Shown here in pieces: positions 2,718 through 6,425 of a stretch of DNA of 6,639 bases. Under the pieces are notes generated by a model, which was given only the letters and a program-made list of their open reading frames with translations, searched no databases and had not been told where the DNA came from. Origin of the DNA: a bacterium Ga0077546 (GTDB lineage Bacteria > Cyanobacteriota > Vampirovibrionia > Obscuribacterales > Obscuribacteraceae); assembly GCA_001464165.1 (NCBI GenBank), contig LNEX01000024.1, positions 1 to 6,639 of the forward strand, read 5' to 3'. Each line of letters begins with the position of its first letter. Position 1 is the stretch's first letter. The translations under genes and the position numbers were made by a program.

Positions 2718-3854
2718 CTACTTAAACTCAAAAGTCGCCTGATTTCCAAGATACGCAGCCGCACTTTGCTTGAGCCACTGCTTCTGCTTGGCGTCACCCT
2801 TGAGGTAAGCATCGAAAAAGGCCACACTCAATTTATTGATAAGCTCATGATACTGAGCGTCTTTTGCCTGATCGCGCTTGCCAATGCCGCGGGCTTGGGT
2901 TCCACCAAAAATGGCATGATCGCCACCATTGAAATTGACTTGATACTGATCAGGGGCGTTGACAAACTTATAGGGAATCAAGCGATCGGCAGCGGTATTG
3001 TTATTGATGGGCGAATTGTCTTCAGTGCCAGTCATATGCATACCGGGTATTTTAATTGAGCCATACAGATTCTTAGGGTCACGGCCCGCAAGATTAACCG
3101 GAGCGCTCATGTATATCGCCGCTTTCACTCTGGCATCAGCCTCGTTGATGCGCCTAGCACCAGTACCAAAATTCTGACCAGCGATGGCCATTGTGGTGCC
3201 AGCTCCAAATGAGTGTCCAGCGCAACCAACCTTTGTCATATCAAGCTTGCCATGCCAAGGTCCGGCCCCGCTGTTAAGCCGCTCAAGCTGATTGAGAACA
3301 AACTTGACGTCGTCGACACGAGCACGCAAATTGTCACCGGTCATCCCCTGTTTCATCTCACGCATAAGGCCTTGTTTCATGCCCTGTGAATTGCCGGGCT
3401 GCATGTTGATGCGCCCGTCTTTCAAGGCGTCTTGCCAAAGCGAGGAATCGCTACCGGGATGCTGCAAATGCAAAGACAAATAGCCGTTCGCGGCCATGGC
3501 TTCACCGAAGTATCCAGCAGCTTCGCGGGAACCACCTAGGCCATGCGAGAAAATCACAACCGGCCAAGGTCCAGTAGTTTTAGGCTGGTAGATTTTAATA
3601 GGAATAGTGCGTTTGCGCGTGGTGTCAGTCCAGTTTTGCAAGGAGATTATGGCGTTGGGGTTGTTTGAGTTTGTAGCAGCCCGTTTCGCCTCCATTAACT
3701 TCTGAAACTTGGCGAGCTTTTCAGCGCGGCTACCTTGAAGAAAGCCTTGGCCAGAGCTCTGCCCGGGGCCTTGCGCCATAACGGGCATCACGACCAAGCC
3801 AAGCGATGCCAAGCCAAGAACCAAACCAGTAACAGAAGATTTGCAGTGAAACAC
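2718..3854 (-). CDS. Secreted alpha/beta hydrolase (PAF-acetylhydrolase / dienelactone-hydrolase-like)
   Basis: A 378-aa protein from GTG at 3854, preceded by GAGG with a 5-base spacer. An ATG at 3887 adds 11 residues but has a poorer ribosome site, and it would bury the signal peptide. Residues 1-27 form a Sec signal (HCKSS, hydrophobic core, cut after VMA). Residues 95-108, GPWPVVIFSHGLGG, match the oxyanion strand-turn. G-H-S215-F-G is the nucleophile elbow. GTED (Asp279) and GGDH (His313) are the likely acid and base. This order fits the predicted dienelactone hydrolase / platelet-activating-factor acetylhydrolase-like group, which cleave ester bonds; the substrate is unknown. A Met/Gln-rich insert (about 151-171, with GMKQG and EMKQGM) lies between the HPGSD loop and the nucleophile and may shape the lid. 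The gene is intact, in contrast to the broken genes on both sides. Confidence 0.88.
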   Translation of the reverse strand: MFHCKSSVTGLVLGLASLGLVVMPVMAQGPGQSSGQGFLQGSRAEKLAKFQKLMEAKRAATNSNNPNAIISLQNWTDTTRKRTIPIKIYQPKTTGPWPVVIFSHGLGGSREAAGYFGEAMAANGYLSLHLQHPGSDSSLWQDALKDGRINMQPGNSQGMKQGLMREMKQGMTGDNLRARVDDVKFVLNQLERLNSGAGPWHGKLDMTKVGCAGHSFGAGTTMAIAGQNFGTGARRINEADARVKAAIYMSAPVNLAGRDPKNLYGSIKIPGMHMTGTEDNSPINNNTAADRLIPYKFVNAPDQYQVNFNGGDHAIFGGTQARGIGKRDQAKDAQYHELINKLSVAFFDAYLKGDAKQKQWLKQSAAAYLGNQATFEFK

Positions 3855-3924
3855 TTTAGCCTCGCAAACACTGAAGGAAAACAGCATCAGTTTAGCAAAA
3901 CTAGACTTACTTCTGTGAGAAGTT

Positions 3925-4072: not shown

Positions 4073-4477
4073 CTAACTTTTGTCGTTGAGTTCGGACTCG
4101 AGCAAATCAAGGTCTGTTCTCTCATATTTGGCTAAAATTTCTCTGCATTTTTGACGGACCGTCTGTTGTACTTGGTCGGCGTAATCATTAATACGGAGTT
4201 CACAGCTCTGCAAGTGTTCGGCACTACAGCAAATGCGAAAGTCATCGAGTATAGGAAGGTCGTCACACTCCGACGCCACACCAACAAAAAAGAGGTCATC
4301 AAATGGTGGCCGCTCTCGCTCATTAGTTACGGAGGACAAATAGTGCAAATTGCAGGCACCGACAAGAATCTGCCTGCCAGTTGCAGTCAGGAGTTCTTCA
4401 GCAATATCGAGCATCTCGTTGATGTTTCTATGGAGCGCATACTCTTGGCCACTTAGAGGTTTTTGGTACATGTTCAT
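4073..4477 (-). CDS. Uncharacterised 134-aa soluble protein
   Basis: ATG at 4477 follows AAGGG with a 6-base spacer. The start overlaps the stop of the preceding frame by four bases (ATGA, 4474-4477), so the two are probably translationally coupled. There is no signal peptide or membrane span. The N-terminal part is helical (NINEMLDIAEELL), then ILVGACNLHYLSS, a hydrophobic strand DLFFVGVASECDDLP (61-75), RICC, and a C-terminal helix with QTVRQKCREILAKYE. Five cysteines sit at 42, 71, 83, 84 and 92 and one at 111. The layout (helix, G-x-C/R-x-L-x-x-L, 'F-x-x-x-SE-x-D-x-LP', helix) reminds me of small bacterial proteins of unknown function, but I cannot name the family. Codon use and length look like a genuine intact gene. 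Confidence 0.78.
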   Translation of the reverse strand: MNMYQKPLSGQEYALHRNINEMLDIAEELLTATGRQILVGACNLHYLSSVTNERERPPFDDLFFVGVASECDDLPILDDFRICCSAEHLQSCELRINDYADQVQQTVRQKCREILAKYERTDLDLLESELNDKS

Positions 4478-4668
4478 CTCAGGCCCTTTGACTTGTGTTC
4501 CGTTGAGGTACTCCCGGGAACGTAGCCCGTACTGTAAGTCTGAATCGGAACAGCTCTAGCTCTCCGATTTGTTGGATTGTGCAGACGAGGCGCCTCTCCC
4601 TTCCGAACGGCACCACCAGCATCTATCGGCTTCGCTGGCACCGACATCACTCGCGGCGAAGCTGTCAT
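4474..4668 (-). CDS. C-terminal piece of the broken proline-rich anchored protein (or a coupled small ORF)
   Basis: A 64-codon frame from ATG at 4668 reads TASPRVMSVPAKPIDAGG and then RKGEAPRLHNPTNRR, Pro/Ala/Arg-rich like the piece before it. It ends in HKSKGLR-stop, overlapping the next gene by ATGA. Its ATG also overlaps the upstream frame's TGA (4665-4668), so it could be an independently coupled ORF. No ribosome site is visible at 4668. The alternative is one protein: a seventh A in the A6 run at 4677-4682 would fuse the frames as PLKK-ILPMTASPRV. Similar composition on both sides of the junction favours a single gene. Confidence 0.5.
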   Translation of the reverse strand: MTASPRVMSVPAKPIDAGGAVRKGEAPRLHNPTNRRARAVPIQTYSTGYVPGSTSTEHKSKGLR

Positions 4669-4856
4669 CGGTAGAATTTTTTAAGCGGGAAATCACCAAT
4701 TGGCCCCGTTGGAGTAAACCTGGCCCGCTCTCTCGCCGAGCTAGCAGGAACAGCAGCATACTCCTTACCCAAAGGCGAAATTCGGCTTTGGGGTTCAGGC
4801 ACTTGCGGACGAGCAGACGCACCAGGCAGAAGGTCTGGGGGAAAATTGAAACTTGG
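4665..4856 (-). CDS. Middle piece of the broken proline-rich anchored protein
   Basis: This frame takes over from the N-terminal piece at a CCCC run (4855-4858) and reads PSFNFPPDLLPGASARPQVP, then PLGKEYAAVPASSARER and FTPTGPIGDFPLKKFYR-stop. It is rich in Pro, Ala and Arg, as in extracytoplasmic linkers. The competing frame gives SAWCVCSSASA-stop, which is not protein-like. Removing one C from the run joins the pieces as VRAKDD-PSFNFPP. It has no plausible start of its own, so it is a fragment rather than a separate gene. Confidence 0.5.
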   Translation of the reverse strand, partial: PSFNFPPDLLPGASARPQVPEPQSRISPLGKEYAAVPASSARERARFTPTGPIGDFPLKKFYR

Positions 4857-5013
4857 GGTCATCTTTCGCCCGCACCGGCTCTGCCAGCAGCGGCTCAGCC
4901 ACAACAAAATCAACCAACAAAACAGCGGCAGCTACCAGCACAACACGACAAGTCAACGCCAGAGCACCCGGCTTGTTAGTCGTAATTCTAGCTAGCAGGT
5001 CGCGATTGCTCAT
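4795..5013 (-). CDS. N-terminal piece of a membrane-anchored proline-rich protein (frameshifted; full span 4474-5013)
   Basis: ATG at 5013 lies in the conserved module described at 5014-5048 and starts MSNRDLLARITTNKPGALAL. Residues about 16-39 form one hydrophobic span (VVLVAAAVLLVDFVVAE), either a signal anchor or an uncleaved signal, followed by EPLLAEPVRAKDD. The authentic frame appears to leave at residue 52. The full reconstructed protein would be about 179 aa: short cytoplasmic tip, one membrane span, long Pro-rich outside domain. No family was recognised. A GTG at 5040 would extend it by nine residues (NEVWYVSI), but that stretch is the promoter-like element, so I reject it. The gene is first in a probable unit with the 134-aa gene (4073-4477). 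Confidence 0.55.
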   Translation of the reverse strand: MSNRDLLARITTNKPGALALTCRVVLVAAAVLLVDFVVAEPLLAEPVRAKDDPKFQFSPRPSAWCVCSSASA

Positions 5014-5048
5014 GATGGATACATACCACACCTCGTTCACTCAGGCAA
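5014..5048 (-). promoter_or_regulatory. Extended -10 promoter abutting the start codon (copy 1)
   Basis: Minus strand: TTGCCT at 5048-5043, 17-base spacer ending GTGTGG, TATGTA at 5025-5020 with a TG one base upstream, then TCCATC and ATG at 5013. If TATGTA is the -10 box (-12 to -7), transcription would begin at the A of ATG. A second copy at 6270-6304 has the same hexamers and the same spacer length, but six of the eleven bases between TTGCCT and GTGTGG differ. No Shine-Dalgarno is present. Confidence 0.6.
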
Positions 5049-5062
5049 TCACGAAATATACT
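5036..5062 (+). promoter_or_regulatory. Possible plus-strand promoter for the zinc-ribbon gene
   Basis: TATACT at 5057-5062 is a good -10 match. The best -35 is only TTCACT at 5036-5041 with a short 15-base spacer. Transcription would begin near 5069, leaving room for the ribosome site at 5077. It overlaps the divergent minus-strand promoter at 5014-5048, so the two may compete. Confidence 0.35.
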
Positions 5063-5093
5063 AGAATAGTTGCACCAAAGGAGCTTGAAGTAC

Positions 5094-5309
5094 TTGGAAG
5101 CAAATCTAGATTGCCTGAGATGCAAAGGAAAAATGGAGCGGGGATTCTTGCTAGACCACTCTGATTCCCTACATTTTTCGACTAAATGGGTAAAGGGTCG
5201 GGCGATGGAAAGTAAGTGGATGCCAGGGACCGTGAAAATGCCAGACTCCACAAGGGAAGTCAAAACATACCGCTGCACATCTTGTGGCTATCTCGAATCT
5301 TACGCCTAG
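5094..5309 (+). CDS. Small CxxC...CxxC zinc-ribbon protein (DUF6487-like)
   Basis: A 71-aa protein with Cys7-x-x-Cys10 near the start (DCLRCKGKMERGFLLD) and Cys61-x-x-Cys64 near the end, in YRCTSCGYLESYA. Between them lie KWVKG and W-x-PG-x-VK. The pairing of 'C-x-x-C-x-G-x-M-x-x-G' with a C-terminal 'YRC-x-x-CGYLE-x-Y' matches a short family of single zinc ribbons of unknown function, which I recall as DUF6487. The two CxxC pairs should hold one zinc. AAAGGAG at 5077-5083 is ten bases from TTG at 5094, my preferred start; a TTG at 5070 would add eight residues but lies upstream of the ribosome site. It is intact, reads opposite to its neighbours, and ends 17 bases from the stop of the convergent membrane gene. 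The role is unknown. Confidence 0.82.
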   Translation: MEANLDCLRCKGKMERGFLLDHSDSLHFSTKWVKGRAMESKWMPGTVKMPDSTREVKTYRCTSCGYLESYA

Positions 5310-5326
5310 TAACGCTCAAAAGCAGT

Positions 5327-5512
5327 TCACGCCTTGCGCTTCAGCCAGTTGAAGACATCGCTGGCGTATTGATGCAAGCCAACCCAAAATGTGAAAAAGG
5401 AAACATCAAAAACGAATCGAGTTGGCGCATCAGTGAAATTGTTCGTCAGAAGGTAGGCAATACCAATTACGATCACGTTTCCGCGATATGCCCATACGAC
5501 AGGCATAGTCAT
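5327..5512 (-). CDS. C-terminal piece of the frameshifted polytopic membrane protein
   Basis: This frame continues the protein of 5430-6269. From ATG at 5512 it reads TMPVVWAYRGN, a membrane span VIVIGIAYLLTNN, DAPTRFVFD, another hydrophobic stretch SFFTFWVGLHQY, and ends ASDVFNWLKRKA. The ending 'G-x-H-x-Y-x-x-D-x-x-x-W-x-x-(K/R)' is typical of bacterial polytopic membrane proteins whose last helix carries a histidine, which supports it as the true C-terminus. A TAA in this frame at about 5519-5521 means it cannot be reached without a frameshift. Dropping one base from the tctt near 5512-5516 joins YHYLRS to MTMPVVW. It is not an independent gene. Confidence 0.65.
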   Translation of the reverse strand: MTMPVVWAYRGNVIVIGIAYLLTNNFTDAPTRFVFDVSFFTFWVGLHQYASDVFNWLKRKA

Positions 5513-6269
5513 AAGATCTTAGATAGTGATAGAAACTTGCCATGGCGATGTGAAAGACATAAATACCTTGTTGAAATTGAAAGACCATGTATTGACGGTA
5601 TGTAGCCCAAACCATACCCTCGGCAATCAAAGCCACCGCCAGCAGTGCATACTTCGAAAGTTGTTTGTCTTTCAATTGCCGCCGCAGATTTAGGGCAAAT
5701 CCAGCACCTATAGTGACTTCCGCCAGCAAGATCAGATTCCATCTGTTTGAGAGAATCTCGACTGGTCCAAACAAGGCAAAGGTGAAAAATGCAAATGCCA
5801 GCGCTGGAAAAATGTAAACTCCGGGGCCTGCTGAAGCTTCTGGTTTGTCATTCAGAGTGTTTGTGAAGAGAATCTCCGCCCTGACAAAGTGTGGCAGGAA
5901 ATAAATCCACATCAAAAAGCTGAACATCATATAGCCGAGAAAATGTCGAAGGGCAAGGAGAACTGCGGCTCCGACCATGAGCAGCGCAAGATATGGCGCA
6001 ATTTTCTTGCGCGCCCGCGACAGAGCCTTGGCCTGCCCGTAATAGGCGTAAATAAAGTGGGCGAGGCCCATCCATCCGACCAGAAAATTGAGATTGAGAA
6101 TCTCAGGGCTGGTTGGACCGTTGAAAGCGTGGGTCGTGGGATAGAGCGCAAACGGCAGCGCGTATGCCAGCCCTGTGAGCAGCAGCATTCCGGCAAGAGA
6201 TGATGCCGCGCAGTCGACTTCGTTCAGTGTAGTTTGGTTCGGTGGCGCGTCAGAAAGCGTATTGCTCAT
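5430..6269 (-). CDS. Polytopic membrane protein, N-terminal ~252 residues authentic then frameshifted
   Basis: ATG at 6269 (MSNTLSDAPPNQ) sits directly after the promoter-like module. An upstream start at 6425 would translate repeat DNA, so I reject it. Hydrophobic spans are visible near residues 22-45, 57-77, 91-109, 111-130, 150-170, 176-194, 205-224 and 234-250. Histidines recur at helix edges: GLAHF (71), LRHFLGY (109), LPHFVRAE (127), VFHIA (240), YHYL (248). This pattern could bind metal or haem, which is inference. After YHYLRS the frame turns hydrophilic (CRMGISRKRDRNWYC) and stops at 5430, while the expected membrane sequence continues in the frame of 5327-5512. The intact gene would be 5327-6269 with about 313 residues. 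No family name is assigned. Confidence 0.75.
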   Translation of the reverse strand: MSNTLSDAPPNQTTLNEVDCAASSLAGMLLLTGLAYALPFALYPTTHAFNGPTSPEILNLNFLVGWMGLAHFIYAYYGQAKALSRARKKIAPYLALLMVGAAVLLALRHFLGYMMFSFLMWIYFLPHFVRAEILFTNTLNDKPEASAGPGVYIFPALAFAFFTFALFGPVEILSNRWNLILLAEVTIGAGFALNLRRQLKDKQLSKYALLAVALIAEGMVWATYRQYMVFQFQQGIYVFHIAMASFYHYLRSYDYACRMGISRKRDRNWYCLPSDEQFH

Positions 6270-6304
6270 TATGGATACATACCACACGGCGCTGACCGAG
6301 GCAA
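6270..6304 (-). promoter_or_regulatory. Extended -10 promoter abutting the start codon (copy 2)
   Basis: Minus strand: TTGCCT at 6304-6299, 17-base spacer ending GTGTGG, TATGTA at 6281-6276, then TCCATA and ATG at 6269. It matches copy 1 at 5014-5048 in both hexamers, in spacer length and in the first nine coding bases (ATGAGCAAT). The -35 box overlaps the first arm of the palindromic repeat array (6302 onward), so the repeat may affect this promoter. Confidence 0.6.
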
Positions 6305-6425
6305 TCGCGACATTTTGTCGCGATTCGAACTCCGAAAATGGCGTTTTTCCCGAATCGCGACACCAATCGCGACATTTTGTCGCGATTCGAACTCCAAAAA
6401 TGGCACTTTTCTCGAATCGCGACAA
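6302..6425. repeat. Two tandem 62-bp palindromic repeat units
   Basis: Units 6302-6363 and 6364-6425 agree at 57 of 62 positions; four of the five differences are transitions in the central spacer and the fifth is the last base. Each unit opens with a 10-bp inverted repeat, AATCGCGACA-ttt-TGTCGCGATT. Its right half also pairs with a third arm: TGTCGCGATTCG with CGAATCGCGACA, 12 perfect pairs (6316-6327/6351-6362 and 6378-6389/6413-6424), with an inner GAAAA/TTTTC stem in unit 1. TCGCGA occurs six times. The two folds exclude each other. No transposase or CRISPR-like spacer is present. It resembles REP/BIME-type or MITE-like intergenic repeats. Confidence 0.85.

What the first reader, a model, noticed from the sequence alone, without database searches (positions are those of the whole stretch)
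5011..6304. Two copies of a promoter-plus-start module predicting leaderless mRNAs
Seen: at 5048-5005 and 6304-6261 (minus) the order TTGCCT, 17 bases ending GTGTGG, TATGTA, TCCAT plus one base, ATGAGCAAT is repeated. GTGTGGTATGTATCCAT is identical in both, while six of the eleven bases between TTGCCT and GTGTGG differ. Conserved hexamers, fixed spacer length and a variable spacer are what a sigma-70-type extended -10 promoter predicts. Inference: the start point falls on the A of ATG and no Shine-Dalgarno exists, so both membrane/secreted genes would be translated leaderless.
Basis: partly seen in the sequence, partly recalled or inferred. Interest (0 to 1): 0.72.

Follow-up and report, generated by a model that had tools for sequence, protein, structure and literature searches.

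The report
Shared promoter-start module, predicted leaderless mRNAs
A short stretch of DNA that looks like a promoter running straight into a start codon sits before several unrelated neighbouring genes in one group of uncultured relatives of cyanobacteria, and probably makes messages with no leader.

Summary
Four related genomes (G001, G002, G003, G008) carry eight more copies. All ten align without gaps: -35 box TTnnCT (8 of 10), 17-base spacer, TGG, TATRTA at -12..-7, a TCCAT-like stretch, ATG; the spacer varies. It is a discrete family of 1-3 copies per genome at gene starts, not a common promoter class. The genes behind it are unrelated: membrane protein A, secreted-protein family B and, in G001, a DUF433 antitoxin operon. 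Window copy 1 is an antitoxin 5' end (promoter plus 14 codons) joined to a B remnant; local recombination is the likely cause. A small class of genes in these genomes has a TATAAT-like box at the same 6-base distance from ATG (9 of 1003 candidate ATGs against 9 of 6483 internal ones), so leaderless initiation is plausible. Weak points: TATGTA matches consensus at 3 of 6 bases and lacks the final T; TCCAT is conserved although a leaderless mRNA would not contain it; lack of a Shine-Dalgarno is not rare here; no RNA data. Verdict: real module, probably a leaderless promoter; new member of a known kind with an interesting history.

The parts
6299..6304 (-). copy 2 (gene A) -35-like box TTGCCT
   Evidence: position -35..-30 from ATG, aligned in 10 copies
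6276..6281 (-). copy 2 -10-like box TATGTA, preceded by TGTGG (6286-6282)
6261..6269 (-). copy 2 start ATGAGCAAT; A of ATG is the predicted +1
   Evidence: +1 is inferred from position only
5430..6269 (-). gene A: membrane protein of unknown function (hydrophobic by eye), 279 aa as read; the C-terminal part lies in another frame (ORF 5327-5512)
   Evidence: 62 homologs, alignment, no Pfam hit up to E 0.1
5043..5048 (-). copy 1 -35-like box TTGCCT
5020..5025 (-). copy 1 -10-like box TATGTA, preceded by TGTGG (5030-5026)
4972..5013 (-). first 14 codons MSNRDLLARITTNK, identical to residues 7-20 of the DUF433 protein P0098
   Evidence: 14 of 14; 58-nt DNA match 4972-5029 to the DUF433 gene of G001 at 86%
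4795..5013 (-). copy 1 ORF, 72 aa: DUF433-derived start joined to the signal-peptide-like region of secreted protein B
   Evidence: residues 18-55 match G001 protein B at 47% over 38 columns
4474..4913 (-). further pieces of gene B in other frames (ORFs 4665-4913 and 4474-4668)
   Evidence: 4665-4913: 86% identity over 58 aa to G001 B; DNA match 4445-4848 to L064 at 78%; 4474-4668 by reading
6261..6313 (-). 53-nt direct repeat, copy 2
5005..5057 (-). 53-nt direct repeat, copy 1

Best explanation
The two copies belong to a small, lineage-specific family of 5' modules: a sigma-70-type promoter (TTnnCT, 17-base spacer, TRTGG-like extended -10, TATRTA) whose +1 falls on the A of the start codon, so that the mRNAs would be leaderless and be translated without a Shine-Dalgarno site. 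Shown: ungapped geometry in ten copies, divergence of the spacer, adjacency to gene starts, absence of a Shine-Dalgarno, and one 5' end shared by a DUF433 antitoxin gene, B-family secreted proteins and membrane gene A. Inferred: that RNA polymerase uses it, that transcription starts at that A, and that local recombination (gene conversion or deletion) put the same 5' end on unrelated genes.
For: Ten copies align without gaps from -35 to ATG: the commonest base is held by 9.6 of 10 copies on average at -17..-2 and by 5.7 of 10 in the spacer -29..-18 (my arithmetic); TTnnCT in 8 of 10 (the others CTGCCT and TCTAGT). Full-geometry search of 4 genomes (22 Mb), up to 3 mismatches: 12 hits, 7 at 0-1 mismatch, all at A/B/DUF433 starts, none at 2, 5 at 3 of which one is G003_B2. 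50 genomes of the family: 9 hits in 5 genomes, 8 of them these copies, reversed control 0. Chance control: 15 exact hits in viral contigs are all followed by frames of at most 46 codons. Register: a TATAAT-like box exactly 6 bases before ATG in 9 of 1003 candidate ATGs against 9 of 6483 internal ATGs, Fisher p 0.0002; 1 and 3 at distances 5 and 7; several of the nine head genes that I recognise by eye (DnaJ-like, NUDIX-like, IspG-like). Recombination: window copy 1 and the G001 DUF433 gene share 263 bp upstream (78%) and 58 nt from -16 into the gene (86%), but from -44 to +9 copy 1 also matches the A promoters (83% to the window's own over 53 nt, 86% to G001_A over 50 nt), which G001 DUF433 does not do upstream of -16; G003 A and B1 share 175 bp (87%) ending 7 bases into the gene.
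Against: TATGTA matches TATAAT at 3 of 6 and lacks the final T; the consensus scan did not list it. TCCAT between -10 and ATG is conserved (-6..-2: 10, 9, 10, 10, 9 of 10), which a plain leaderless promoter does not need. -10-like boxes are as frequent 28-30 bases before ATG (10, 10, 8 of 1003) as at 6, so most promoters in these genomes give leaders. In the first, smaller sample the 6-base peak was not clear. Shine-Dalgarno signals peak 5-8 bases before ATG, so leaderless starts would be a minority. The ten copies are not independent. G003_B1 is about as like A of G008 (84% over 178 bp) as like A of G003, so the exchange need not be recent. The codon test against coding is weak (p about 0.06). 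No RNA evidence.
Confidence: 0.6

Rival explanations
1. The conserved block is coding: the proteins start upstream with a short tail such as (V/L)WY(V/I)SI before the methionine.
For: The frame is open through the block in most copies, and several database proteins begin upstream (P0001 ...AAWYVSIM, P0003 ...VLWYVSIM, P0096 and P0097 ...IAWYISIM, P0098 MWYVSIM). The variable base at -1 is a third codon position.
Against: G003_B2 has TAG at -30 and no ATG/GTG/TTG before the ATG; W_B has TGA at -30. Of the five varying positions in -17..-2 three are second codon positions (-17, -5, -2), one first (-9) and one third (-16), while the third positions -4, -7 and -10 do not vary. In A orthologs 65 of 162 same-residue codons keep their third base in all five, so three invariant codons have p about 0.06: suggestive only.
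Confidence: 0.1
2. The block is a regulator's operator (for instance of the DUF433 antitoxin) or a site for an alternative sigma factor that makes A, B and the antitoxin one small regulon; transcription may start elsewhere.
For: TCCAT is conserved beyond what a promoter needs; TGG-N7-CCA is a weak dyad (by eye); -10 and -35 are off consensus; one 5' end serves three kinds of gene. In Synechocystis the COG2442/DUF433 antitoxin VapB10 binds its own promoter (PMC3834315, passages and section 14 seen).
Against: A keeps the block in G002 and G008, where no DUF433 was found, and in G003, whose one DUF433 lacks the block (these are draft genomes and may be incomplete). Of 13 distinct DUF433 loci found I read the upstream DNA of 11: only the G001 C38 one has the block (L031 and L120 were not read). 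VapB10's inverted repeat is unlike this block and its transcript starts 45 bp upstream of the ATG. These speak against the antitoxin as regulator, not against an alternative sigma factor.
Confidence: 0.2
3. The block is only a duplication or recombination scar with no promoter role.
For: Copies lie 1.3, 1.8 and 5.1 kb apart in the window, G001 and G008; G003 A and B1 share 175 bp.
Against: Between the A genes of G001 and G003 the upstream similarity begins only at -17, yet a TTnnCT-like box stays at a fixed distance while the spacer has diverged; a mere scar should decay evenly. (A of G003 and G008 are alike over the whole 444 bases compared, so this rests on the more distant pairs.)
Confidence: 0.1

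Closest known systems
TA-led (leaderless) bacterial genes of Zheng et al. 2011, BMC Genomics 12:361 (PMC3160421, passages seen)
   Same: A Pribnow-like box about 12 bases before the start codon and no Shine-Dalgarno.
   Different: Their consensus is TANNNT; TATRTA lacks the T. Here the box sits in a conserved low-copy module shared by a few neighbouring genes.
DUF433 (COG2442) antitoxin - PIN-like toxin operons, e.g. Synechocystis vapBC10 (PMC3834315, passages and section 14 seen)
   Same: In G001 the module precedes a DUF433 gene followed by a DUF5615 gene. That DUF5615 is the toxin partner is recalled, not tested.
   Different: vapBC10 has a 45-base leader and another promoter; the module also serves other genes, and the window keeps only 14 codons of the antitoxin.
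Extended -10 (TRTGn) sigma-70 promoters (recalled)
   Same: TGTGG directly before the -10 hexamer in most copies and a 17-base spacer.
   Different: -10 hexamer TATGTA/TATATA; -35 TTnnCT; predicted +1 on the start codon.

Membership tests
Leaderless (TA-led) gene | -10-like box about 12 bases before the start codon | tested here: met
   TATRTA at -12..-7 in 10 of 10 copies
Leaderless (TA-led) gene | box fits TANNNT | tested here: not met
   TATGTA (9) or TATATA (1) end in A in 10 of 10 copies
Leaderless (TA-led) gene | no Shine-Dalgarno before the start | tested here: met
   no GGAG, GAGG, AGGA or GGGA in the last 15 bases before ATG in the 10 copies, by reading
Leaderless (TA-led) gene | mapped transcript 5' end at the start codon | not testable with these tools
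   no RNA data
Extended -10 sigma-70 promoter | TG one base before the -10 hexamer, and a -35 box 16-18 bases upstream | tested here: met
   TGG in 10 of 10; TTnnCT 17 bases upstream in 8 of 10
Extended -10 sigma-70 promoter | -10 close to TATAAT, with A2 and T6 | tested here: not met
   A2 met, T6 not; consensus scan, which asks for both, did not list it
DUF433-DUF5615 toxin-antitoxin operon (window copy 1) | DUF433 domain and partner gene present | tested here: not met
   only the first 14 codons match; no Pfam hit for the ORF; both genes present in G001

The most novel reading that the evidence does not exclude
A leaderless promoter-plus-start cassette taken from an antitoxin gene acts as an interchangeable 5' end: because it needs no ribosome-binding site and carries its own start codon, recombination between its copies can give a neighbouring gene a working promoter and start in one step, a bacterial counterpart of first-exon shuffling, and may keep A, B and the toxin-antitoxin operon under one control.
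Probability: 0.2. Interest if true: 0.68.

Novelty: new member of a known kind. Interest (0 to 1): 0.42.

Why it matters
How translation starts without Shine-Dalgarno sites is little charted in the cyanobacterial phylum (passage in PMC3160421), and I found nothing on it for these uncultured relatives in the held library ('leaderless' + 'Melainabacteria'; 'Obscuribacter' + 'transcription start': 0 papers each; nothing else was searched for this). The module gives a clean, testable prediction, and its presence before unrelated neighbours suggests how a gene can acquire a complete promoter and start codon at once.

Tried and rejected
Rejected: a general promoter class (1-3 copies per genome); an operator that belongs to DUF433 antitoxins as such (10 of 11 DUF433 loci read lack it); a phage-borne element (15 exact viral-contig hits look like chance; phage and plasmid records were not searched); a known structured RNA (no Rfam match at gathering scores); a coding extension in all copies (stops in W_B and G003_B2).

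Inconclusive: the first sample (411 kb, ORFs of at least 150 aa, ATG/GTG/TTG) had 2 of 566 (G001) and 2 of 238 (G008) candidates with a -10-like box at distance 6, no clear peak. The larger sample (1.57 Mb, which includes the first; ORFs of at least 200 aa, ATG only) showed it. Both size and criteria changed between the two, so the statistic is not a single pre-planned test; the distance 6 itself came from the finding. The order of the fusion events is not resolved: window copy 1 and G003_B1 have similar DNA after LLARITTNK, while in G001 an intact DUF433 precedes a separate B. Three weak DNA matches in G017, G025 and G045 (E 0.002-0.006) and four of the five 3-mismatch hits were not examined. 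On re-checking, the confidence of the best explanation was lowered from 0.62 to 0.60, because only 310 of 909 ORFs show a Shine-Dalgarno-like site by my crude count, so its absence says less; the scar rival went from 0.08 to 0.10, because A of G003 and G008 are alike over the whole upstream stretch.

Full report
Observation. The two modules are present exactly as described. The joint pattern matches twice in the window and never in 200 shuffles. The repeated block is 53 nt long at 83% identity.

Where it is. No whole genome is held for the window. The closest locus is L001 in G001 (92% protein identity).

Ten copies. Searching the eight genomes with TGTGGTATGTATCCAT at up to 2 mismatches gave 15 hits in 6 of 8 genomes. 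Read out, 6 of 6 hits with 0-1 mismatch and 2 of 9 with 2 mismatches lie one base before the ATG of gene A, a B-type secreted protein or a DUF433 protein (the frame of one, G008_B, is masked just after its start); the other 7 do not. With the two window copies that makes ten. Aligned from the ATG they need no gap: TTGCCT (3), TTGTCT (1), TTCTCT (2), TTTTCT (2), CTGCCT (1) or TCTAGT (1) at -35..-30; 17 bases ending TGTGG (7), CGTGG (2) or TTTGG (1); TATGTA (9) or TATATA (1); TCCATn (8), TCCAAC (1) or TGCATC (1); ATG. The spacer is much less conserved than the block. The copies are not independent: G002_A and G003_A are 98% alike over 89 bases, and G003_A and B1 share 175 bp.

How specific. TGGTATRTATCCATNATG at up to 1 mismatch in 50 genomes of the family: 9 hits in 5 genomes, 0 for the reversed control. 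Eight are the copies above; the ninth, in G029, is an ATG followed at once by a stop. The full geometry at up to 3 mismatches in four genomes: 12 hits, 7 at 0-1, none at 2, 5 at 3; the reversed control gave 4. Of the 3-mismatch hits one is G003_B2; the other four were not checked. In viral contigs 15 exact hits occur, all followed by frames of at most 46 codons, which shows what chance looks like. A looser DNA search with the B1 5' end found 15 matches in 7 of 50 genomes, the three outside the four genomes being weak and unexamined. So the module is a discrete family at gene starts, not a general promoter class.

The genes behind it. A has no Pfam match and looks like a multi-pass membrane protein. 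In G001 the second copy precedes a DUF433 gene (PF04255, 3.6e-19), followed by a DUF5615 gene (PF18480, 2e-19) and then a 263-residue secreted-type protein B. In the window the corresponding ORF begins MSNRDLLARITTNK, identical over 14 residues to a DUF433 protein in the database (P0098), and goes on as protein B (residues 18-55). Its DNA matches the G001 antitoxin gene over 58 nt around the start and over 263 bp further upstream. So window copy 1 is an antitoxin 5' end in front of a B body. In G003 two B genes carry the module and this kind of N-terminus, and a third has the N-terminus with only part of the module. Of 32 B homologs in the protein database 13 have a recognisable MSNCxLLARITTNK-like segment near the start, by eye, and others start quite differently. 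The four more distant DUF433 proteins that I fetched also have an LL-RIT segment there (P0099, P0101, P0114, P0203), so I infer that it went from antitoxin to B.

Local exchange. Window copy 1 from -44 to +9 matches the A promoters (83% to the window's own over 53 nt, 86% to G001_A over 50 nt), while its upstream flank and its codons 4-14 match the G001 antitoxin locus. G003 A and B1 share 175 bp that end 7 bases into the gene; B1 is about as like A of G008 (84% over 178 bp). Patch-wise recombination between neighbouring copies would leave such traces; order and age are not settled.

Promoter and leader. The boxes have canonical numbering if the A of ATG is +1. Shine-Dalgarno words peak 5-8 bases before ATG; by a crude count 310 of 909 ORFs have one. 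In 1.57 Mb from G001, G002, G003 and G008 (909 ORFs of at least 200 aa, 732 with an ATG in the first 26 codons, 1003 such ATGs) a TATAAT-like box (TAnnnT, at least 5 of 6) stands exactly 6 bases before 9 ATGs, against 9 of 6483 internal ATGs (Fisher p 0.0002) and a mean of 2.35 at the other distances 0-20 (Poisson 0.00075; the next highest there is 6, at distance 14). Boxes are as frequent at 28-30 bases (10, 10, 8), as expected of promoters with short leaders. The smaller first sample, taken with other criteria, had shown no clear peak. So a small leaderless class, about one gene in a hundred, is likely in this lineage, in the register seen in the module. Against: the module's own -10 hexamer ends in A, and TCCAT is conserved.

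Coding alternative. The frame through the block reads (V/L)WY(V/I)SIM in many copies and database proteins use it, but G003_B2 has TAG at -30 and no start codon after it, and W_B has TGA at -30. Third positions are invariant in the block, where 65 of 162 same-residue codons of A keep theirs in five orthologs (p about 0.06 for three codons, suggestive only).

Literature. Leaderless genes with TANNNT near -12 are known in many bacteria (PMC3160421, passages). A DUF433/COG2442 antitoxin gene in Synechocystis has a 45-base leader and an unlike operator (PMC3834315, passages and section 14). No paper in the held library joins 'leaderless' with 'Melainabacteria', 'Obscuribacter' with 'transcription start' or 'DUF433' with 'DUF5615'.

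Verdict. A real, conserved promoter-plus-start module shared by unrelated neighbours, probably through local recombination; leaderless transcription is the best reading but unproven.

Noticed in passing
window 6302-6424: Two tandem 61-nt units rich in inverted repeats (AATCGCGACATTTTGTCGCGATT) run up to, and overlap by 3 bases, the -35-like box of copy 2; G001 lacks this insertion there, and a search of about 1.59 Mb of related DNA gave no match longer than 13 bases.
   Followed up: partly
window 4474-5013, 5327-6269, 1355-2565: Three genes are split over different frames compared with relatives; either indel errors in the contig or decaying genes.
   Followed up: partly
L066 (G003 C82) 799-6842 and L067 (G003 C457) 8416-8880: A cluster of secreted B-family paralogs; B homologs in the database show several quite different N-termini on one body (MSNC-LLARITTNK, MQNPQMLDTARHHQHQ, MVALSKFA, MRLIEKSLNRAL), as if 5' ends are swapped.
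   Followed up: partly
L064 9856-10251: DUF5615 gene directly behind the module-led DUF433 gene in G001; not seen in the window's ORF list.
   Followed up: partly
window 5070-5309 (+): Small ORF with a DUF6487 match just over the Pfam cut-off (25.1 against 24 bits), divergent from copy 1.
   Followed up: no
window 2718-3887 (-): Alpha/beta hydrolase of the PAF-acetylhydrolase type (PF03403, 1.2e-14).
   Followed up: no
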